In this document: positions 364 to 64,000 of the stretch, piece after piece
How positions within the stretch are numbered: the first letter of the stretch is position 1
Layout of the letters: each line of letters begins with the position of its first letter
Assembly (NCBI RefSeq): GCF_032884065.1
Contig: NC_088880.1
Coordinates: 26,474,715 to 26,538,714 of the forward strand
Direction of reading: 5' to 3'
DNA length: 64,000 nucleotides
Source of the DNA: Artemia franciscana
Lineage: Eukaryota > Arthropoda > Branchiopoda > Anostraca > Artemiidae
The notes under the pieces: model-generated
Seen by the model: the letters and a program-made list of their open reading frames with translations, nothing else
Told to the model about the DNA's origin: nothing
The model's database searches: none
Program-made: the position numbers and the translations under genes

Positions 364-1416
364 AATGTCTAATGAGAAAGAAAGACTTGTGCATAATGCT
401 TTGCTAAATTATTGATCGCGAGCGCTCCAAGCAAATAAGACTGATGAAATATGCGAAAAGGCAGTGGGATTTATGACAAGGATACGATTATAAAAGCTAA
501 GGATACACTTTGGCACTATTCGAATACTTCGAGTCGCAACGCTGCTCGCCAAAAGATTGCCGATAATTTGTTAGATATGCTGAAACTGATCCAGTTATGT
601 GAGACTAACCGGATCAAATTGCCGAAAATCGTAATCTTTGATCCTACGGAGGTCCCAACTACGCCAGATGAATTGAGTGCTATTGTTACTCAAAAAGTGA
701 AAAAAACTCCAATAGTTTGAAGAACTTTATTGAAAGTGAGAAAAAAGCCCTTGCAGCTGAGAAACTTGCTACATCCATGAATCAATTAGTCACTCCACCG
801 GCCAAGCCTTCCTATGCAGTTATTCTCAAGAAGCCCCCCTTATACCTTAAAAAGCCTGACTCCCGTAAAGCTTATCTGGAGCATGTTTGTGGAGAAGCTA
901 GTGGGAATATAATCGAGCTTTGTCCCAGTAGAGACCTCACAAAGTGGTGCCGAATCTAATATATCACTCATAACCGGGAATAACCCTGAAGTCGAGCCTA
1001 AACTCCGATATGTTCCTGAAGATCTGGATGAAAATAGCCTATATGATCTGATTGTCAACTGTTTGAAAGCAACTCAAATTCGAAACAACCGTTCGTTTAA
1101 GCTTCTATTTGAGTCTAAAGAGGACCTCGAGTCTTCTATTCGCTTTCCGCCCATCATAGAGTACGAAAGACTCCCCATTAGTATATTTCAACGCTTGCCA
1201 ACCCAATGCTTTTCTTGCCAGTCATATGGTCATTTTGCGTTTGCGTGCTCAGGTACCCGTAAATGTTCCAAGCGTGGTGAGGCTGGCCACTCCACAACTA
1301 AAGATAATCCTTGTACCAAGGCACTTAAGTGTGCTCTTTGCAATTTCTCCGACCACCCATGTTACACTTTTAAATGTCCTGTCGCTCAGTCTCTTCTAAA
1401 GAATTCCAATGCCTGA
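364..1416 (+). pseudogene. LINE ORF1 (gag-like, CCHC zinc knuckles), frameshifted
   Basis: A candidate start is the ATG at 364 (MSNEKERLVHNALLN), but TGA follows at 412 and the frame shifts before 451. The frame continues as KDTIIKAKDTLWHYSN and shifts again near 717 and 1,000. The last part (1,063-1,416) contains cysteine-histidine knuckles: CFSCQSYGHFAFAC, then KCSKRGEAGHSTTKDNPC, then KCALCNFSDHPCYTFKC. Such knuckles bind element RNA in LINE ORF1 proteins. The TGA stop overlaps the ORF2 ATG in ATGCCTGA (1,409-1,416), a layout that suits stop-coupled reinitiation. The protein is broken by at least three frame changes. Confidence 0.8.
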
Positions 1417-2065
1417 AGAAACCTTAAAAATTGTATCTCGGAACATCAATGGGAAAGTTCTACCGAGACATCACCTACTGTCTGAACTTTGCTTGCGGTT
1501 TGACGTGGTGGGTCTTCAGGAACACTTCTTGTCAAGCGATAGTTGTCAACTGTTGGAGTTCACGTCTTCTCATAATCTGTTTTTCCACCATGATAAGTCC
1601 ACTCGCGGTAGGCCTTCAGGTGGTTTGGCCCTGATGATAAAGAAAGAGCTACTTGGTAATCTAGTTGCTAAGTCTGATAGTTTCCTTGCGGTTGAAGTTT
1701 CGAATGTGGTCATATTCGTCGTTTATTTTCCCACTAATTACCGTAATGATATGTCTGAGAGAAAGTTCTCTCACACATGTACATCTATTGCCAAGCTAGT
1801 ATCAAAATATGAAGATGAATGCCTAAGTTGTCTCCTGTTTGGTGACTTTAACTGTGAACAGTCTGACCCTGAAAACAATAGATCTCAGATCTTGCTCCAT
1901 GCTTATCCAAGTCTGACCTATGTTGGAAATGATCGTGATTTTACGTACATCCATCAATCTGGTTCCGTGTCTCAGTTGGACTATTTCTATTGTTCTCTAT
2001 GATTAAACCCACCTCTAATACTATGGTTCTTCTTGATTACTCCATATCCGACCACATGCCGATCT
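1409..2065 (+). pseudogene. LINE ORF2 endonuclease domain
   Basis: This is an apurinic/apyrimidinic-like endonuclease of the exonuclease-endonuclease-phosphatase fold, which nicks target DNA to prime reverse transcription. Visible motifs are SRNINGK near the start, VVGLQEHF with the catalytic glutamate, GGLALMIKKE, LLFGDFNCE with the aspartate-asparagine pair, and SQLDYF. The frame closes at 2,002, but the terminal catalytic motif SISDHMPI continues in another frame at about 2,040-2,065, so one frameshift separates it. The domain is otherwise intact. The start is the ATG at 1,409, which overlaps the ORF1 stop. Confidence 0.85.
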
Positions 2066-4087
2066 GTAATTCTTTTCAAATAAAGCCCTTGCCGCAAACT
2101 TCACCCACAAATTCCCCACCTAAATGGTTCTTCAGCCTCAACTGGGAAGCAGCTAACATCGATTCCTACCAGAGTTCATGTGACTACATACTGTCGAAGA
2201 TCCGAATTCCTTTCGCACTTCTCTGTTGTCCAAATATGACAGTAAAATCAGAAAAAAACATCCTACTAAACATATACTGTCTGAGATAACGCATGCTATC
2301 CATACAGCTGAGAAAACTGCAATTCTGGTCCGCGAAATTCGCCACGGCACGGAAGTGCGTAACTGGCGGAATAATCCTAATCTCCTGGCGCATGTGATTC
2401 AGCGAAATTCCGGCTACATTTATGGGTAGATTGTGGGAAGCTGCGCTCTGGAGTAGTCAACGCTGTTCGTATTTACACGAGACGTAAATTTTCCAAAGCC
2501 ATCGCACAGCATAAGGCTAACGAAATTGCCCGTACCAGCGAGACTGTCGATAATTCGCCTCTTGCTTTATGGCATCTTCGATCTAAGAACAAATCTTCCA
2601 ATGGCCCGCCCTGCATGCCAGAAAAAGACTGGTGCGACTACTTCAGAGACCAATTTTCAGCCCCTAATTCCTACCTAGATAACACCTTTTGCCAGGCCCT
2701 CGATATGGAGCTTCAGTTTGCAGTTGAGGATATTGGTGTCCTGGTCACTCCGTCCTTGATGCGTTCCAAAATTGATAAGGTAAAAAAAAAAGTCTAAGAG
2801 TATCGATGGTATATCTGGTATCCATTTAAGCTTTGCCAGCAATCTTCTCCTATAGTACCTTTCTCTGCTATTTCAAATGATTTTCGTTACTGGCATCGTT
2901 CCAGACAGCTTTGGTGTTGGATTGGTCCATCCTATTCTCAAAAAAGGTAAACCAGCTGACCAGTGCGCTTCATATCGTCCGATCACTGTTTCAACTACTT
3001 TTTGTAAGCTATTTGAATCCCTTATTTTTGATGAAATTGCACTTCGATGCACTACTCCGGACGACCAGTTCGGTTTCAAAAAGCACTCAGGACGGGAACA
3101 CGTTCACAGCGTTCTTGCAAATCTTCTTATTGATGCAGATAAAAATGGTGATCTTCTCGTCTTTGGAGCACTTGATGTTAGTAGAGCCTTCGATTCTGGC
3201 ATCCATGGCCATATCCTGCTCAAAGCCCTTCAGCTAGGTGTTTCCTCTTGCATCCTTTCCCCTGTTTACAGTATGTACAATAAGCTCTCGGCTGTTATCC
3301 TGATCCCCTCTCCGTCCGGCAGTTTTCCTTCAAAGGAAATGCTGAGTGTCAAGAAAGGCGTACGTCAAGGTTGCAAAACTTCTCCATCACTGTTTAATAA
3401 CGCTATTATCGAAGCACAGCAAGTAATAAAGCCGTCGTGCTTTTTCCCGTGGGATTAACCTTTCGCTGCTGAACTTTGCTGATGACATTCTTCATGTTTC
3501 TCGTTCGATATCTTTATTTCAACAGAATTACGACTCACTTGCAGCGGCATACAAGTAGATCGAACTTTCCTTCAACGAATCTAAAACAGAACTTCTTTTC
3601 TTCAATGGTTCAAAAAATGAGCTTTCAATTAGCCTCTCCGTTAAAATTAGCGACACTGATTAAGCCTTGTGAGTCCCTTACGTATCTTGGCCTTCCTATT
3701 TCTTCTACATTGAAGGACACACGCTCAGCACTGACAAACCATCTCTGTTCCCGTCTACGAGCGTCTAACGGATTACTTGTTGCCAATAAGTATCGTTTCA
3801 ACCGTCCTCTCCTTACCCGGCTATACAATGCTTTTACTACTACCCCCCATCTGCTTGCTCTAGTTCCCTTCTGGAAAATATTCAAAGCTACCGAAAAGAA
3901 AGCCATTTGCAGCGCATTTCACAGTTATGATAAGTTTCTCCTGCGTCTCCCTTTGTGGGACAGCAATGGCGGCATCTCCAGGAAATATAAGGTCACCAAC
4001 CCTTCCATGGCCATAGAGAGAAGAATCTACAAATTCAGTACCAATGTTTTAAGAGCCAACCACCCCTGGACTGGTGTTGTTTTATAA
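2066..4087 (+). pseudogene. LINE ORF2 reverse transcriptase domain, broken
   Basis: This is the reverse transcriptase of the same element. The linker carries WCDYFRDQFSAPNSYLD near 2,622. Fingers and palm follow: GLVHPILKKGKPADQCASYR and PITVSTTFCKLFES from about 2,910, DDQFGFKKHSGREHVHS, LDVSRAFDSG, and GVRQGCKTSPSLFN at about 3,360. The catalytic FADD lies at 3,475-3,486, in another frame, just after the main frame stops at 3,458. A thumb-like segment with CESLTYLGLPISS follows near 3,670. Several frameshifts make it non-functional. The minus-strand fragment at 35,850-36,510 has matching linker and RT motifs and probably belongs to the same or a related family. Confidence 0.85.
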
Positions 4088-10906: not shown

Positions 10907-13148
10907 TTAAGCAAAAATTTTTTCCTCTCTTCGTTTTTTTGTCATAACAGTTCCAGGTTTATGCTGTGCCTCTGGGTGATTTGCTAACTCTGGCGGGCAT
11001 TGTGAAACAGGACTTGATAACAGTAGCTGCTTCAAGTCATAAAATAATGGACTGTCATCTTTGGTAAGGAAGGTAATAGCAACACCAGTTTTTCCAGCAC
11101 GACCTGTTCGACCAATACGATGGGTATAATCTTCAATTGACTTGGCCATATCATAATTAATAACCAATGAAACATCTTTAATGTCTATACCTCTACCAGC
11201 AACATCAGTGGCAACCAAAATATCTTTGCCACCACCTTTCAAACTGGCTAAAGCAAATTCTCTTTGTTCCTGACCTTTACCACCATGTAAGGTGGTGGCA
11301 TTATGGCCCATTTTTTCAAGACCCTTAGCCAGAATGTCTGCTCCCTTCTTTTGATTGACGAATATAAGAATAGGAGGTACAATTCCTCTATTAAGGATAT
11401 CAAGTAATCTTTTACGTTTCTCGTTTTCTGATACCATGTAAACAAGCTGTTCAACACGCTCGACAGGTTTGCCAATAGAACCAATATAAACAATAGCTGG
11501 TCGACGAAGGTATGTCCTGGCAAGGCGTTCGACAGCAGGGGGCATTGTGGCAGTAAACATGACAGTTTGTCTATATTTCTTTTTTGATAGAAAATTAGCT
11601 CTTAATAATTCCATATCTTCTGCTTCATCAGTATCAGGTTTTTGATTTGTGACAGGCATATGCTCTAGAATTTTTTGCACATCAGGTTCAAAACCCATAT
11701 CAATCATCCTGTCAGCTTCGTCAAGCACAATATATGTACAACGAGACAACACTAGATATCGATTTTCAAGGACATCAATCAGACGACCTGGGGTAGCAAT
11801 AACTATTTCACAGCCAAGACGAAGGCGAAAACCTTGCTCTTCTCGAGACAGCCCACCAATAACAGCTACAGTTCTCATGCCCAGAGGGGTAGCAAACTTT
11901 ATGCACTCTTCTTCTATTTGCTGAGCTAACTCACGGGTGGGAGCCATAATGATAGCATAAGGTCCTTCATCAGCTTGTTCAAAGCGCTCAATCTTAGGCA
12001 GAGACTGAATCCAAACGAAAAGAGGAAACAAAAACGCTAATGTTTTACCAGAGCCAGTTTCAGCAACACCGATAATATCGCGATTCTGTAAGCCGATGGG
12101 TATTGCTTGTCTCTGAATGGGGGTTGGCTCAAGATATCCAGCCTTATCTACTATTTCCATAAGTTCTTGGGGTAAACCTGCCTCTTTCCATGTGCGAAGA
12201 GGATTTGGTATTTTACCCCCTTTAAGCGAAATATTGTAGTCTTCACGAAATATACGCCAATCCCTTTCTGTCATTTCGTCCAGTTCTTTTTCTGACCAAT
12301 GTCTGTCATCCCACTTTTGCTTATCCTCTTTGTGTTTTTCTTTACCAAGACGAACGGTTTCTTGGCTCTTTTCTTCATCAGTCCGTCTTTTTTCTAGTAG
12401 CTCACCATAAAATTTTGTATGCTCTTTTTTCTGTTGTTTAATATCAAGACCAGCAAGGTGACCTCGACCAAAAAATTGTATCTGGTGTCTTTCCTTATAA
12501 ATTGGATTATAGTCAACAGATGTATCTTCATTGGCGTCCCAATCGAAAACAAACTTTCGCTCATTTAGGCGGCGCATTCGACGCCGTCTCTTTGCACCAC
12601 CTAAATATCTTTCTTTTATAGCTTCCATTTCCTTTTCCTTATCTTTGTCGTCACCAAGCTTTAGGTCTCTTTCCCGATCATGTCTACTCTCACGGTCTCT
12701 ATCCCGACCTCTGTCACGGTCACGATCCCTGTCTCTTTCTCGGTCCCTATCGCGTTCCCGATATCTTTCTGGCTCACGATATCGTTCCTGTTCACGATGC
12801 CGTTCAGGTTCTCGCTCGGCCTCTCTTTCATTGTGACCCCCGTGCATAAATAAAAGTCTCTTCTTTCTTTCTTCATCTTGAAGCCTTCGCATTTCTTCTG
12901 TTTGTTGTTGACGCCGTTTTAAAGCCTCTGCTTCACGTTCAGCTTTCGATAAAAATTTTGGTTTGCTTGCTGCTTCTTCTTCTGCTTTTTTCTTAGCAAT
13001 CAGTTCTTCCAATGAAAATGGCTCTTTTCTTTTGTTATCTAATGAAAGCTTCTCGTCTTCTTCTTCTTCTACCTTGGTAACATCCTTCAGAACCCTGTCA
13101 TTTTTGGACACTCTTTCAGCCTTTGGGCTCCGAGACCTGGATCGGCTC
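10907..13148 (-). CDS. DDX23: DDX23/Prp28 DEAD-box RNA helicase (U5 snRNP 100-kDa protein), main exon
   Basis: This is an ATP-dependent RNA helicase of the U5 snRNP. In known homologues it helps swap U1 for U6 at the 5' splice site during spliceosome activation in the nucleus. About 746 residues lie in one exon. An RS start is followed by a charged helix ([35 protein letters not shown]), an RD/RE repeat tract near 12,660-12,830, and the conserved block KERYLGG...[13 protein letters not shown]. The helicase motifs are all present: Q motif [20 protein letters not shown] (about 12,045-12,064), [66 protein letters not shown] and [13 protein letters not shown]. The C-terminus [17 protein letters not shown] closely matches the animal protein. 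The exon begins after a TTTTTTTCTTCAG acceptor at 13,149-13,150, so the open frame upstream of that is intron. The start codon lies in an exon not found here. Confidence 0.97.
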
Positions 13149-13440
13149 CTGAAGAAAAAAATCAAGCATTAAAACAAAAAAACAGGCATATATCATATGA
13201 AAACTTTATTTATTGATTTTATTTATACTAAGGATATTTATCGTCTATTATTGCTTAGATTTTCTTTATCTTTGAAACTATTAAAATTAGCTTCATAATC
13301 AACCTTGATAGCAGGCCAATGTAAAGGTTATTATTTAAATTATTTCTTATGATTCATTTATTTAGTCCCATCCACTACTCTCTTTATTTCTACTCTCTCC
13401 CTTTTTTATTTTTTTCACATAATTCTCTTTTAAAAAAGCC
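13149..13440 (-). other. DDX23 intron sequence upstream of the main exon
   Basis: The acceptor AG is at 13,150-13,149 on the minus strand, with a T-rich tract before it. No upstream coding exon is obvious. A candidate donor GTAAGT reads on the minus strand near 13,987. Joining it would give a codon split AT|G in front of the RS repeat, which could be a start codon, but this is speculative. Confidence 0.35.
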
Positions 13441-37903: not shown

Positions 37904-38773
37904 TTTACAAAACTCTTAGGTTAAATTTGGCGTAAAACACTTCCTGGATTAGTCATTTCTAACTATGGTTATTTCTTCTTTAATGTCTTTCAGCGCCAGA
38001 TGTTTCATGAAACTGAAGAAGTATTTAGTTTTTTTGTAAAAAATCAATGTGTAGTCAAGATTAATTCGTACATCTTGGATTGAAAATTACTAGTGAAAGA
38101 CTACACATATAGGTACTGCCATTTGGTTTATAATTGAAGAGTTGGAACCTTTTTCCTTAGAAGTTTGTTGTAATAGGATTAATGACACTTTGAAGCTTAG
38201 GCTAGATTCACAATCTATAGTAGGCTAGAGCATAAAGAGGGTCTTTCATCTACACAAATCTTTTTCTCCCAAGAGAGGATTGATTTTCATGAAATTTGGT
38301 AAACATATTTGGATTTTATTGCTAATAAATTCCTAATAGGCTAGAATTTTATTAGGATTTTTATTGGTGTGTTTTACTTGGTAAAAAGTAAACACACCAT
38401 TTTATGCCCCCTTTTTTTTTTCTTGCAAGTACAGTATATAAGTGTGTACAAGACAAAAAACCTATATATAAATCAATTGAGTTAGCACATAGGGGAAACC
38501 AGCCCACATTAGGATACCAGGTAAATTTTTAGTTTTATCACAAGCTGTCTAAAGTGCATATTACTGCATATAGTAAGATTCTGTAAAATTCTAGCTAATT
38601 GACTTCTTGCTATCTCAGAAAGGGTTTAGGTTAGGAAAATGAAACTTTCAGGGGTGAATCTACAGACTAATGACAAAGAAACAATAGCCTATGCAATCAT
38701 CAGTATCTTGCTATATACAGTAATACACACTTTAGAGCACTTGGAACAAAAGTAAACATTACGTTCCCCTCCA
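37904..38773. other. Non-coding
   Basis: AT-rich, no supported feature. It would hold the promoter of the candidate gene at 37,903 if that gene is real. Confidence 0.35.
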
Positions 38774-39132: not shown

Positions 39133-39584
39133 CCCCTGAAGGAGAAGGGTAAACCAGAAATGGATGTACTCCTAGAATTAGCATTTCTAGTAGAAACATA
39201 CTATTAATACATAATACTGCATTGTATAGAAACTATGCAGCTCTACAGCATAGTTTCCAGTTTAGAAAGCTTGTGATGAAACTAAACATTTACCAGACAC
39301 CAAAATTCAGAAGTCCAAGACTTCACCATTAATTGACCATTTGTTTATATCCTTTGCTATTGCTCTTCTATTGCTTCTACTACAAATTTTTGAGCTCTTA
39401 AAAATGATGAATTTTCAATTAAAGTATGAGTTATTGGTTGTTTTTAACAAAATAATACTATGTTTCTCAGTACTGTTTTCTTGGTTGTTTTCAACAAAAT
39501 AATACTACATTTTTTCAATGCCAAAATTATTTTAAATAGGGTTAGGCTAGGTCACAAAATGCTTAAATTGGAATTTGTTGTAGA

Positions 39585-40200
39585 AGTGATTATTATATTT
39601 GTAAAGAACATAAAAAAAAGGCATCAAGTGGTATGTTCACTTTAATGGTAAGTCAATTATATGAACTCAAAAAATATACCAGCCTAGGTTGGGACACCCC
39701 TTAGCCCAGGTTAGGACATTGTATGAATTGTAACTAAACTTTTTTTAAACACATTTATTGAAAATGTATAGTGAAGTACAAATACATAGATAATGAGAAG
39801 TTGTTTTGCACTCAATTATTGTCATCTCTTAGCTTGACATTAAAAGACAAAGTTTTATGCCTAGAGGTTGTTTTGGGAAATTTTTTGTTGCTCATATTAT
39901 TGACTTACAAATAAAGTGAACATACCACTTGATGCCTCTTTTAAGGCTCTTTATGAATATAGTGATTGCTTCTATTGCTAATTCAAATTTAAGCCTTTTT
40001 AAGCTCTTGAAAATGACCAAAATGTTTCTAGTTTTAGGGTATTAAAAAGGCTTAAAACTTAAAACAAACAACCTAACTCTTTAAACAAACAAAATTTGTG
40101 ATATAAGTAATTGTTATATTTGTAAAAAGCTTAACAGAAGGAATTGAGTGGTATGTTCACTTTATTTGTAAGTCAATAATATGAACAAAAAAATACTGTT
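39585..40200. repeat. Three-copy repeat in plus-minus-plus order
   Basis: The core GTGGTATGTTCACTTTA followed by TTTGTAAGTCAAT and ATATGAAC occurs plus at about 39,620-39,675, minus at about 39,890-39,945 and plus at about 40,145-40,195. Each core carries 80-100 bp of similar flanks. No coding. Confidence 0.7.
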
Positions 40201-60128: not shown

Positions 60129-60223
60129 GGGAGCGTTTTCGATAGTAAAACGATGCGTACAAAAAGCTACAGGATTAGAATTTGCTGCGAAGATAATCAA
60201 CACGAAAAAATTGTCTGCCAGAG
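60129..60223 (+). CDS. CaMKII: CaMKII exon 2: glycine loop and catalytic lysine
   Basis: The first G completes the lysine codon of exon 1. The exon then reads [20 protein letters not shown] and [11 protein letters not shown] plus one G. GAFS is the nucleotide-binding glycine loop, and the lysine of AAKII is the ATP-anchoring residue (lysine 42 in the mammalian alpha isoform, 41 here). The match to animal CaMKII is nearly residue for residue. The donor is GGTTTGTT, with GT at 60,224-60,225, and the exon is 95 nt. It ends in phase 1, so the following exon must supply the rest of the aspartate codon. Confidence 0.95.
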
Positions 60224-62196
60224 GTTTGTTTCTATTTCGTTATGCACAATATTGATAAATTCTGCTATTTTATTTGTCTTGGATCAAATATAAGTATTTC
60301 TCTGTTTTATTCTTATTTGTCGTTCATTTAGTTATTATTTTTTTAGTTTATTTTTAAACTAAGTTTTTTTTTTAGTTTATGAGAGGTTTAGTTTATGGAG
60401 TTTTTTTTTTAGTTTATGTATTTATTTTTTATAATCTTCGATTTGGAGTGAGATAAATCGATAATTATTTCAATTTTGTATTTTTTTTTACCTTTTCGGC
60501 TTTTAATTACTATTTTTCAATGTTTTGGATGCAAAACGTTTTATCAAAGCCTTTTCTCCAAATGCGGTTTTTATGTCAAGTTGGTTACACAACCTTGAAA
60601 TTGGTAACAAATCAGAGTAGCCTACACCCAAATAGGGTGGATCTGATCACACCCGCCAAGGTGTGAGTTGATTGGTCATCGGTATTGATGGTAGTTCGTC
60701 AACTTCGGCTGAAAACGGCAAATTGTAATAATTTACTTATTTATATAATTTATTTTTATTACAATTTCTTTATTGTAATTCACTCTTATTGCAGTGAGCT
60801 TCTCTAGCTGATATTGTAACAAACAGGTAAGCTGATTGAGCCAGGAATGGCCTTGATATGGTTATATATAGTGAGGTTAAATATATGGTTATATATGAAT
60901 AGAATAAATTAATAAATAATTATGATAAGAAAAAAAAATTCACTTTACATTACTCACTATATAAAACTCACACTGCCCTCATTGAGCTGTGAAAGCATTG
61001 ATGACATCAAGATGACATTCATCCTAGGTCTGTTTATGTACGAAGAAAATTGTTTTATAATATTTTTGCTTCGTTCGTTTCAGCAATATGAATTTTTTAG
61101 GGCAGTATCACATTCTCGTCACTGTTGCCGTGTTAAAGCTTAAAAATAAATAAGCAAAACTGATTACTTAAATTTGACAACGCTTTTTATTCATAAAAGC
61201 TCCAACATCACATGTTAGGTTAGGTTATCTGTTGATTCCCAAATACAACTATATTTTCATAAGCTGCTTGGTAGCGTGCCAACTACTACCAAAAACTGTG
61301 TTACTACATTTGAAGGTCTTTTAATACATGGATTCTCAGTTTTCCTAAGCTTACATTTAACCAATTTAAACAACTTTACTGCATTTTCACTGTCCTTTGT
61401 AGTTAAATGCCTCCTTTTGGTATGAAGTGTCTCTCAGATTTTTTGTTATGTTTATCTCATACTGCGTATATTTCCTGGTAGATATTCCTTGGTAGTGAGT
61501 AAATGCTTAAACAGTTAATATAGGAATCAAATGGAGCCCATATGAGAAAAGTGTTTCAAAAGATTTTCATTATCTGGCGAATTTGATATCCTAGGTTAGT
61601 TGAAACGAATTTGTCAGAAACTTTTTTCCCTTCTCTAAGCGAAGGTACTGTAATTTTATACTTGAAGTTGTTTCCCTGGAAACGATAGAATAATGAGCGT
61701 TTCGAGGGTGAGAATGATGTGTGTATTGAAGGATGTTAAAGATAAAACTTGTTCCCAGTGGGTGGCGTAGGGATCTGCCCCTCTCCCTAAAACTGTTACG
61801 AAATTTCTATTTCTTGTAGAAAGTACGCATAAAATTATCTATGAAAAGTAAGTTATTTAGAAGAATAGTTATAGTTTCTATTCTTTTATATTTTCTATTT
61901 CTCTGGGAAAATGCGAATAAGCTCGTCTTAGAAAATTTAATTATTTTTAAATCAGTTTTAACAGCAAGAACAGTTATAGTTAGCAGATTCTTTAGGTGAG
62001 ATTTTATTTAAAATATACTAATAAAGAAAAACCTGTTTCTACGGGCCATTTGCTGATGTGTTTTTATTTCTAGGTTGTTAATTTCATTTATTTATCTCGA
62101 TTTTTACGACTGGAACTTGTTTTTTTATCTTTGTTATTATTATTATTACTATTACAAAAATTTACGCAATTCACTTAAATATGCAATTATTTGCAG
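60224..62196 (+). other. CaMKII intron 2
   Basis: 1,973 nt from GT at 60,224 to AG at 62,195-62,196. T-rich around 60,340-60,430. The open frame at 60,922-61,143 is not supported as coding. Confidence 0.85.
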
Positions 62197-62256
62197 ATTT
62201 TCAAAAACTCGAGAGAGAAGGGAGAATATGCAGGAAGCTGCAGCACCCTAATATAG
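62197..62256 (+). CDS. CaMKII: CaMKII exon 3a: alpha-C helix, lysine version
   Basis: Exactly 60 nt, phase 1 at both ends. With the G from exon 2 it encodes D, FQKLEREGRICRKLQHPNI and the first base of valine. LEREGRIC contains the alpha-C glutamate that pairs with the catalytic lysine (E60 in mammalian alpha, E59 here). HPNI is the conserved start of the next strand. The acceptor is TTATTTGCAG (62,195-62,196 AG) and the donor GGTATGT (GT at 62,257). A near-identical exon lies 784 nt further on (3b), and an inverted copy lies between them. Confidence 0.93.
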   Translation: MFKNSREKGEYAGSCSTLI

Positions 62257-62422
62257 GTATGTATTCACATCTCTAGTGGTGAATATTGTAATTCTTTTAA
62301 ATTTATTTAAAATCATTGCCAAGATACCCATTTTATTTGCACGGAATTTCAGCTTTTCGGAGAAACCTGATAGCCGTTACTAAACTGTCTTCAAAATCGT
62401 CAACTGCCTACTCATTAGGCAC

Positions 62423-62482
62423 CTGTATCAGGATACTTTAGATACCTGCATATTCTCTCTTCCCTCTCGAGTTTTTCAAAAT
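62423..62482 (-). pseudogene. Antisense copy of CaMKII exon 3
   Basis: On the minus strand, after a TTCTGCAG acceptor-like sequence, exactly 60 nt read AT followed by FEKLEREERICRYLKYPDT and a final G, then GTGCCT. The frame is open and the length equals that of the sense exons. By eye it matches exon 3b at 53 of 60 positions and exon 3a at 49 of 60. Flanking sequence does not match. It lies on the wrong strand to be spliced into CaMKII mRNA. Substitutions in HPNI (now YPDT) suggest it does not encode a working kinase segment. Confidence 0.85.
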
Positions 62483-63039
62483 CTGCAGAATAAGCGCGTA
62501 TTCAACTAAATTGTATAAATTTTTGTGAAAAAAAAGCCCCAGCAGTAAAAATAACAAAATATCAAGAGTAGCAAATAGAATCGACTACTTCTGCCAATAA
62601 TATTCGGAACAGTAAGCAATAGTAAGGAAATGCTATTTACATAAATTTATGTAAATAATATAAATGTACATAATTTTAAAGAATTATAAATATAAATTTA
62701 CATAAGATTTGCATAGAAAATCCAACAAATTTTACATTAAAAAAAACATTGACAAACAGTTGTAGGGAGAATACAGAGAATGGTCAATATCCTATTATTT
62801 AGGGACAGGGCTTGAGATCAGAAGCCCTCTCTCTGTTTGCATACCTGGGGTAAGAAAATAGTCATAATACTGGGAATTTTGACATAAATCATGGTTTTAT
62901 TTACAATTGTGTGAGGTCATAACATAAAAAAAAAAATCAACTACCCAGAAATAAAAACGGATTAGCACGCGGAATGGCTCTTAGGACAGGACTTTTTGTT
63001 TAACAGGTTGTCGGATTATAAACAAACCCTGTTTTCCAG

Positions 63040-63099
63040 ATTTTCAAAAACTCGAGAGAGAAGGGAGAATATGCAGGTATCTACAGCATCCTAATATAG
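63040..63099 (+). CDS. CaMKII: CaMKII exon 3b: alpha-C helix, tyrosine version
   Basis: Exactly 60 nt, phase 1 at both ends, interchangeable with exon 3a. It encodes FQKLEREGRICRYLQHPNI, which differs from 3a only in tyrosine for lysine after RICR (position 66 in mammalian alpha numbering, leucine there). Six of 60 bases differ, all in the second half. The acceptor is CTGTTTTCCAG (AG at 63,038-63,039), and the donor GTATGTATTCACATC is identical to that of 3a for 15 bases. Downstream intron similarity continues for some tens of bases, so a segment was duplicated in tandem. Splicing either exon keeps the frame; splicing both adds 20 residues. Confidence 0.85.
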   Translation: MFKNSREKGEYAGIYSILI

Positions 63100-64000
63100 G
63101 TATGTATTCACATCATCATTGATTAATATTGTTATTCTTTTTAAACTTATTTCAAGTTCAGAATGAGTCAGAATTTTCGTTTTTCTGACCAGCATTGCCA
63201 CGATACTCATTTTGATTGCCCAGAATTTTAGGTTTTTGATCTTTTTCCGCCCCCTCTAAAATTATATAGTTCTGAAATCTTAAATAAGGGTTGTATAATG
63301 GAATAAATAAAACAAGTTGATTTTGTAAATAGAATTTAAGAATTAAGTAAAAAAACTGAAAAATAATATGTGAAATAGAAATGAACGAATTCTGAGGCGT
63401 TTTATAAGTTAATAAAATATTAAATATATTTTGCAGGGTGAGCTACTATTTCTTTAGGGTGATATATTGCTTTCTGCACGAACTTCCTTTGCTATTATGA
63501 AGTAAATAATAGAGCAATGTGAATGAAACTTTCAGAATCAACTCAAACGACAAATCAAGAAAACCTATGGAAGTTTTACTCACCAGCCTCGGCTACTTTC
63601 TTTTAAATACGAAGTAGAAAGTTCAGGACTAAAAATAAAAGCAAATTTGATTTTTGCATTTTAGAATTTTTTTAGAACGTAGAAAACTTTCTTTATAATA
63701 AAAAAAAAAGTTCGCTCCCACCCTTTCAATATTTTTTAAGGTAAGTATGTGAATATAGTTTTCTGTTTTACTTTCAAACCTTTCAAACCTTACCTTTCTG
63801 TTTTACCTCTGTTTTACCCCTTACGTCTGTCGTAAGGGGTGGCTGTAACTATCTCAATCCAAAATAAAAGTTGTGAAACAAAGTGACAAAACTAAAGAAA
63901 TAAACCTTGAATAAAGTAGATCTACAGCCAGTAGGAAGAAAAAAAGAAGAACAGTAGAAAATAGAAAGTTCTACTTTATAGAAATTTTGTCCGAGATTAA
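63100..64000 (+). other. CaMKII intron after exon 3b, continues beyond the window
   Basis: No further CaMKII exon (the VRLHDSI segment) is visible before the window ends. AT-rich. Confidence 0.6.

What the first reader, a model, noticed from the sequence alone, without database searches (positions are those of the whole stretch)
62197..63099. An antisense copy of the exon lies between the two sense copies: possible RNA-pairing splice switch
Seen: 62,423-62,482 is a minus-strand copy of the exon, precisely 60 nt, open in frame, flanked by AG- and GT-like ends. By eye it is complementary to 3b at about 88 percent of positions and to 3a at about 82 percent. Flanks are not shared, so only the exon-length block is conserved. 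In the pre-mRNA it could pair with 3a (167 nt away) or 3b (558 nt away), hiding one exon at a time. Known: competing intronic RNA pairings enforce mutually exclusive splicing in Dscam and other arthropod genes, but there the selector is intronic, not an inverted copy of the exon. The function here is inferred.
Basis: partly seen in the sequence, partly recalled or inferred. Interest (0 to 1): 0.88.

Follow-up and report, generated by a model that had tools for sequence, protein, structure and literature searches.

The report
Decaying inverted exon copy in CaMKII
Next to two copies of a small kinase-gene exon in the brine shrimp lies a third copy in reverse; it could pair with them in RNA, but it looks like a decaying duplication rather than a selected splice switch.

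Summary
The minus-strand exon copy is real: 62423-62482 matches 3b at 53 of 60 and 3a at 49 of 60 positions. The gene is CaMKII of Artemia franciscana, exon 3. The reversed copy also carries the intron just upstream of 3a (35 of 44 columns identical), so it is a 106-column inverted duplication, not an exon-only block.

It differs from 3a as much in its exon part (11/60) as in its intron flank (8/43; p = 1.0). Its seven private changes are six amino-acid changes and one silent; five break pairing with 3b and two leave G-U wobbles, as chance would give. Folding does show two competing states, 3a paired or 3b paired. 3a pairing is favoured in every setting, by 2.8-3.3 kcal/mol in a 1-kb stretch and by 20-27 in longer ones. 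Both annotated Artemia cluster representatives nevertheless use 3a.

Best reading: a decaying inverted duplicate beside a tandem exon duplication. Competing pairing follows automatically from the layout; no sign that selection uses it. No relatives and no RNA data could be examined.

The parts
62197..62256 (+). Exon 3a of CaMKII (60 nt; reads DFQKLEREGRICRKLQHPNI, the first codon being split with exon 2); the copy used in both annotated Artemia cluster representatives
63040..63099 (+). Exon 3b, second sense copy (56/60 identical; K to Y, two silent changes); same donor GTATGT; better acceptor score than 3a (6.7 against 3.5)
62423..62482 (-). Inverted exon copy (reads DFEKLEREERICRYLKYPDT on the minus strand)
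62483..62526 (-). Inverted copy of the upstream intron flank of 3a (35 of 44 columns identical), part of the same inverted block
62154..62196 (+). 5' intron flank of 3a that matches the flank of the inverted copy
62257..62357 (+). 3' intron flank of 3a shared with 3b (85 of 100 aligned pairs identical; one 35-nt gap and three single-base gaps)
63100..63236 (+). 3' intron flank of 3b matching that of 3a
62406..62420 (.). Perfect 5-bp hairpin GCCTA-CTCAT-TAGGC next to the exon-3'-end boundary of the inverted block (62421); possible template-switch point, speculative
   Evidence: read from the sequence; no statistical test
60129..60223 (+). Exon 2 of the same gene (phase match to exon 3)

Best explanation
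Exon 3 of the brine-shrimp CaMKII gene was duplicated locally: once in tandem, giving 3a and 3b with a shared downstream flank, and once inverted, giving a reversed copy of the exon plus its upstream flank. The inverted copy now drifts neutrally. It can base-pair with 3a, or with 3b if 3a is out of the way, simply because it is a reversed copy; that pairing has not been selected as a splice switch. Shown: the copies, their extents, the mixed ancestry, the divergence pattern and the predicted competing folds. Inferred: neutrality, absence of a splicing role, and that 3b is a usable exon.
For: Inverted block includes intron flank. Exon part and flank of the inverted copy diverge equally from 3a, 11/60 against 8/43, p = 1.0. 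Seven private changes in the inverted copy against none in 3b, binomial p = 0.016; 6 nonsynonymous, 1 silent; 71% of 20,000 simulations with seven random changes had no stop; 2 of 7 changes leave a wobble pair against 1.55 expected. Both annotated cluster representatives use 3a, the exon that the favoured pairing would hide.
Against: Such inversions are not shown to be commonplace here: of 11 other local inverted pairs of like size in 220 kb, 10 belong to dispersed repeats (7 have copies elsewhere in the 220 kb; 3 by whole-genome search) and 1 (38524-38583) could not be tested; the exon pair may be the only single-copy one. The pairing is strong: the 62150-63150 fold is -246.1 kcal/mol with 3a paired, -243.3 with 3b paired and -193.8 with neither, and it would cover the splice sites of 3a. 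Two states so close in that stretch are what a switch would need. Tests rest on 60 nt and one genome, so weak selection cannot be excluded. 3a-3b exon divergence is not significantly below that of their 3' flank (4/60 against 15/100, p = 0.14), so constraint on 3b is not firmly shown either.
Confidence: 0.69

Rival explanations
1. Competing-pairing splice switch: the antisense copy pairs with either 3a or 3b and hides one exon at a time.
For: Two competing folds, 2.8 kcal/mol apart in 62150-63150 at 37 C and 3.3 at 25 C; 3b pairs at 0.91 when 3a is absent or its pairing is penalised; location between the copies; arthropod genes use competing RNA pairings (PMC6071210).
Against: 3a favoured in all five settings, by 20-27 kcal/mol in the three longer ones; no pairing-preserving pattern; divergence equals that of intron flank; inclusion of both exons keeps the frame.
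Confidence: 0.09
2. One-way silencer: the antisense copy, transcribed soon after 3a, locks 3a in a hairpin in part of the transcripts and thereby lets 3b be used.
For: Fold places 50 of 60 bases of 3a and 34 of 43 of its 5' flank in the duplex; 0.83 at all six nascent lengths tried; favoured in five of five settings; the 3a acceptor scores lower (3.5 against 6.7).
Against: Both annotated representatives use 3a; none of 235 listed proteins carries the 3b string RYLQ (capped lists of cluster representatives, other members not visible); no sign of selection on the pairing.
Confidence: 0.1
3. RNA-editing or small-RNA substrate: the exon:antisense duplex is edited by ADAR or diced, the copy acting as an editing complementary sequence.
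For: A long exon-intron duplex is the usual kind of ADAR substrate (general knowledge; one search gave a listing with starts of abstracts only).
Against: No RNA data; nothing in the sequence marks an edited site; conservation untested.
Confidence: 0.08
4. Assembly artefact: one of the copies is a mis-joined allele.
For: The genome is repeat-rich (67% repeats, passages of PMC11492255).
Against: Three diverged copies with partly different flanks; no further copy returned from 6468 contigs.
Confidence: 0.04

Closest known systems
Competing docking-site/selector pairings at mutually exclusive exons (Dscam, 14-3-3zeta, Mhc, MRP1, srp; as described in PMC6071210)
   Same: Duplicated exons in one gene and an element in the intron between them that can pair with either side, one at a time, in predicted folds
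   Different: There the pairing elements are conserved and intronic; here the element is a reversed copy of the exon itself, folding favours one partner, and within-genome tests show no constraint
Tandem exon duplication (PMC6071210; one passage of PMC9013439)
   Same: 3a and 3b: same length and phase, shared downstream flank, one amino-acid difference
   Different: A third copy is inverted; use of 3b and mutual exclusivity are unverified
U2AF1 exons Ab and 3 (passages of PMC5224494)
   Same: Duplicated exons with inverted repeats proposed to repress one of them
   Different: Those inverted repeats lie upstream of each exon in conserved regions; not a reversed exon
Editing complementary sequences of ADAR substrates (general knowledge, listing)
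   Same: Intronic stretch complementary to an exon
   Different: Arose as an inverted exon copy; no editing evidence

Membership tests
Mutually exclusive exons with competing RNA structures | Duplicated exons of equal length and phase between the same neighbours | tested here: met
   60 nt each, same phase, exons 2 and 4 located
Mutually exclusive exons with competing RNA structures | One element able to pair with either copy, one at a time | tested here: met
   50 of 60 bases of 3a, or 55 of 60 of 3b when 3a pairing is penalised; prediction only
Mutually exclusive exons with competing RNA structures | Comparable strength, so that the choice can be regulated | tested here: inconclusive
   3a favoured by 2.8-3.3 kcal/mol in 1 kb, by 19.7-27.0 in longer stretches
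Mutually exclusive exons with competing RNA structures | Pairing element conserved, compensatory changes | tested here: inconclusive
   Within-genome tests show no constraint; no relatives held (output)
Mutually exclusive exons with competing RNA structures | One and only one copy in each mRNA | not testable with these tools
   No RNA data; the two visible representatives carry 3a only
Tandem exon duplication | Homologous neighbouring exons in the same orientation with traces of shared flank | tested here: met
   56/60 in the exon, 85/100 aligned pairs in the 3' flank
Local inverted duplication | Reversed copy extending beyond the exon, single locus | tested here: met
   62154-62258 against 62421-62526, 106 columns, 81%; three places returned from the genome
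ADAR editing complementary sequence | A-to-I editing in the paired exon | not testable with these tools
   no RNA data

The most novel reading that the evidence does not exclude
A reversed exon copy has been taken up as a built-in antisense: it folds onto exon 3a as soon as it is transcribed, or onto 3b when 3a is engaged, and so sets the ratio of two CaMKII isoforms that differ by one residue (K or Y). Splice control would then have arisen directly from an inverted exon duplication, without a separate selector.
Probability: 0.13. Interest if true: 0.8.

Novelty: new member of a known kind. Interest (0 to 1): 0.35.

Why it matters
If the pairing had a role, it would show that a single inverted exon duplication can create two competing folds at once, a simpler route to splice control than duplicated selector sequences. 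As it stands it is an example of a direct and an inverted exon copy side by side, and a warning that complementarity between exon copies in opposite orientation is automatic and not by itself evidence of function.

Tried and rejected
'Not a balanced switch': my first reading of the folds was that 3b pairing is negligible. Penalising 3a pairing showed a competing 3b state only 2.8-3.3 kcal/mol away in 62150-63150, though 20-27 away in longer stretches. I therefore raised the switch from 0.06 to 0.09 and the novel case from 0.10 to 0.13, and lowered the best reading from 0.72 to 0.69.

Base-rate argument: I first took 11 other local inverted pairs in 220 kb (there were also 64 other direct pairs) as showing that such inversions are common. 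Copy-number checks showed that 10 of the 11 belong to dispersed repeats, so the argument was dropped; the 11th could not be tested.

Constraint from exon against flank: one search used flank differences miscounted by eye (10 of 44 and 13 of 56; p = 0.63 and 0.017). Counted from the alignments these are 8/43 (p = 1.0) and 9/55 or 15/100 (p = 0.14 both), so constraint on 3b is not claimed from them.

Whether the stretch before 3b (62527-63038) is a transposon insertion: asked repeatedly, never answered. Order of events stays open (see report).

Literature: text searches gave, as far as listed titles and starts of abstracts show (20 of 98 papers, 10 of 17, 1 of 3, the rest none or one), no paper on a reversed exon copy as selector nor on CaMKII exon 3 in Artemia. 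Few were opened; this is no proof of absence. No structure was predicted.

Full report
What the sequence is. The exon translates as DFQKLEREGRICRKLQHPNI and matches CaMKII in solved structures. A search with the protein returned Artemia franciscana CaMKII isoforms on a contig of 37,334,939 bases, the length of contig C18 that holds the window. The annotated protein P0001 maps onto 18 coding exons with 17 junctions solved, from 48401 in the window to about 92 kb beyond its end. The genome size of 1.27 Gb agrees with a published assembly (passages of PMC11492255; 6,486 scaffolds there, 6468 contigs here).

The observation. Exons 3a (62197-62256) and 3b (63040-63099) agree at 56 of 60 positions; the minus-strand copy (62423-62482) agrees with 3b at 53 and with 3a at 49. 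It is open in the coding frame and flanked by AG and GT on its own strand. A whole-genome search with 151 bases around 3a returned these three places only.

The error in the observation. The inverted similarity does not stop at the exon. In exon orientation, 44 columns directly upstream of the inverted copy and of 3a hold 35 identities, 8 mismatches and 1 gap; none of 500 mononucleotide shuffles reached the score. The inverted block is 62154-62258 against 62421-62526, 106 columns, 81%. 3a and 3b share about 100 nt of downstream intron: 85 of 100 aligned pairs identical, with one 35-nt gap and three single-base gaps. The 5' flank of 3b matches neither that of 3a nor that of the inverted copy, and the 3' flank of the inverted copy does not match that of 3a, beyond shuffles.

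Is the inverted copy kept by selection? Against 3a it differs at 11 of 60 exon and 8 of 43 flank positions (p = 1.0): the exon part is no better kept than intron. With 3a as outgroup, seven changes fall on the inverted copy and none on 3b (p = 0.016). Six of the seven change an amino acid. In 20,000 simulations with seven random changes, 71% had no stop, so the open frame means little. Five of the seven break the pair with 3b and two leave G-U wobbles (1.55 expected; all). Nothing here points to selection on code or on pairing. The sample is small: 60 positions in one genome.

Does it make a switch? Exon-only duplex energies are -62.5 (3a) and -75.3 (3b) kcal/mol; with flanks -106.9 and -95.5; 200 shuffles of 3b against the copy average -16.5 with a minimum of -30.5. 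In the free fold of 62150-63150 the mean pairing probability with the copy is 0.83 for 3a and 0.002 for 3b; three further settings gave 0.83-0.84 and 0.000, and six nascent ends from 62600 to 63300 gave 0.83 for 3a. But there is a competing state: with 3a pairing penalised, or 3a left out, 3b pairs at 0.91. The free energies of the two states in 62150-63150 are -246.1 and -243.3 at 37 C, -324.8 and -321.5 at 25 C; with neither pairing, -193.8 at 37 C. In 62000-63300 (37 C) and 61800-63500 (37 and 25 C) the gap grows to 27.0, 19.7 and 25.3 in favour of 3a. A gap of 3 is within the error of such models (general knowledge); a gap of 20 is probably not. So two alternative folds are real as a prediction, with 3a the favoured partner. 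Any reversed copy between two sense copies would give this.

What the annotation says. Both cluster representatives of the annotated protein (P0001, standing for 10 sequences, and P0002, for 3) carry the 3a residues, the exon that the favoured pairing would hide. The other members are not visible, and annotation is not a measure of use. Of 235 CaMKII proteins from two capped listings (best 120 each of 7992 and 7977), none has the 3b string RYLQ; one has RYCQ.

Could both exons be used? 3a and 3b fit the phase between exon 2 and exon 4, have the same donor (score 7.7), and acceptor scores of 3.5 and 6.7 against a matrix from this gene's 17 introns. Joining both would keep the frame. Mutual exclusivity is an assumption.

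How it arose. At all four positions where 3a differs from 3b, the inverted copy agrees with 3b. Lysine stands at the replaced residue in 236 of 239 motif matches (leucine in 2, tyrosine in 1) in the 235 proteins, so the tyrosine is taken as derived and shared by 3b and the inverted copy. The upstream flank of the inverted copy, however, matches 3a and not 3b. Either the inverted copy came from a 3b-type exon that still had the old upstream flank, or the two exchanged sequence later. This is unresolved. Of 11 other local inverted pairs in 220 kb, 10 are dispersed repeats and 1 was not tested, so the exon pair may be the only single-copy case; that speaks against calling such inversions commonplace here.

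Comparison with what is known. In the competing-structure model a docking site pairs with one of several conserved intronic selectors (PMC6071210, parts 1-3 of 5 read); its authors derive these from duplication of one arm of a stem-loop. In U2AF1, inverted repeats upstream of each duplicated exon are proposed to repress one of them (passages of PMC5224494). A reversed exon copy as the arm is not described in what I read, nor in the listings named under Tried and rejected. The present case shares the layout and the two-way fold; balance is inconclusive, and conservation could not be tested in relatives.

Verdict. A real, non-chance inverted duplication of exon 3 with intron flank, most likely decaying. 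The RNA-pairing switch is physically possible but without evidence of use.

Noticed in passing
62197-62256 and 63040-63099: Both Artemia sense copies encode LEREG; among 239 motif matches in 235 listed CaMKII proteins 237 have LEREA and the 2 with LEREG are the two Artemia proteins.
   Followed up: partly
P0121 and P0122: Annotated CaMKII proteins of the flea Ctenocephalides felis and the fish Coryphaenoides rupestris contain three and two tandem copies of the exon-3 peptide: exon 3 may have been duplicated more than once in animals, or these are gene-model errors.
   Followed up: no
10907-13165: A 752-aa uninterrupted minus-strand frame with DEAD-box helicase and DDX23-like domains, possibly an intronless or retrocopied gene.
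   Followed up: no
1409-3458: Endonuclease-like and reverse-transcriptase frames, as in a LINE-type element.
   Followed up: no
39556-40195: Direct-inverted-direct trio of a dispersed repeat, the same layout as the exon trio; 45 matches listed genome-wide, a lower bound.
   Followed up: yes
62051-62092 and 62926-62967: Another inverted pair, 42 nt, 79% complementary, that could enclose the 3a:antisense hairpin but not coexist unknotted with 3b pairing; it may explain why longer stretches favour 3a more.
   Followed up: no
62406-62420: Perfect short hairpin GCCTA-CTCAT-TAGGC next to the end of the inverted block, possibly a template-switch point.
   Followed up: no
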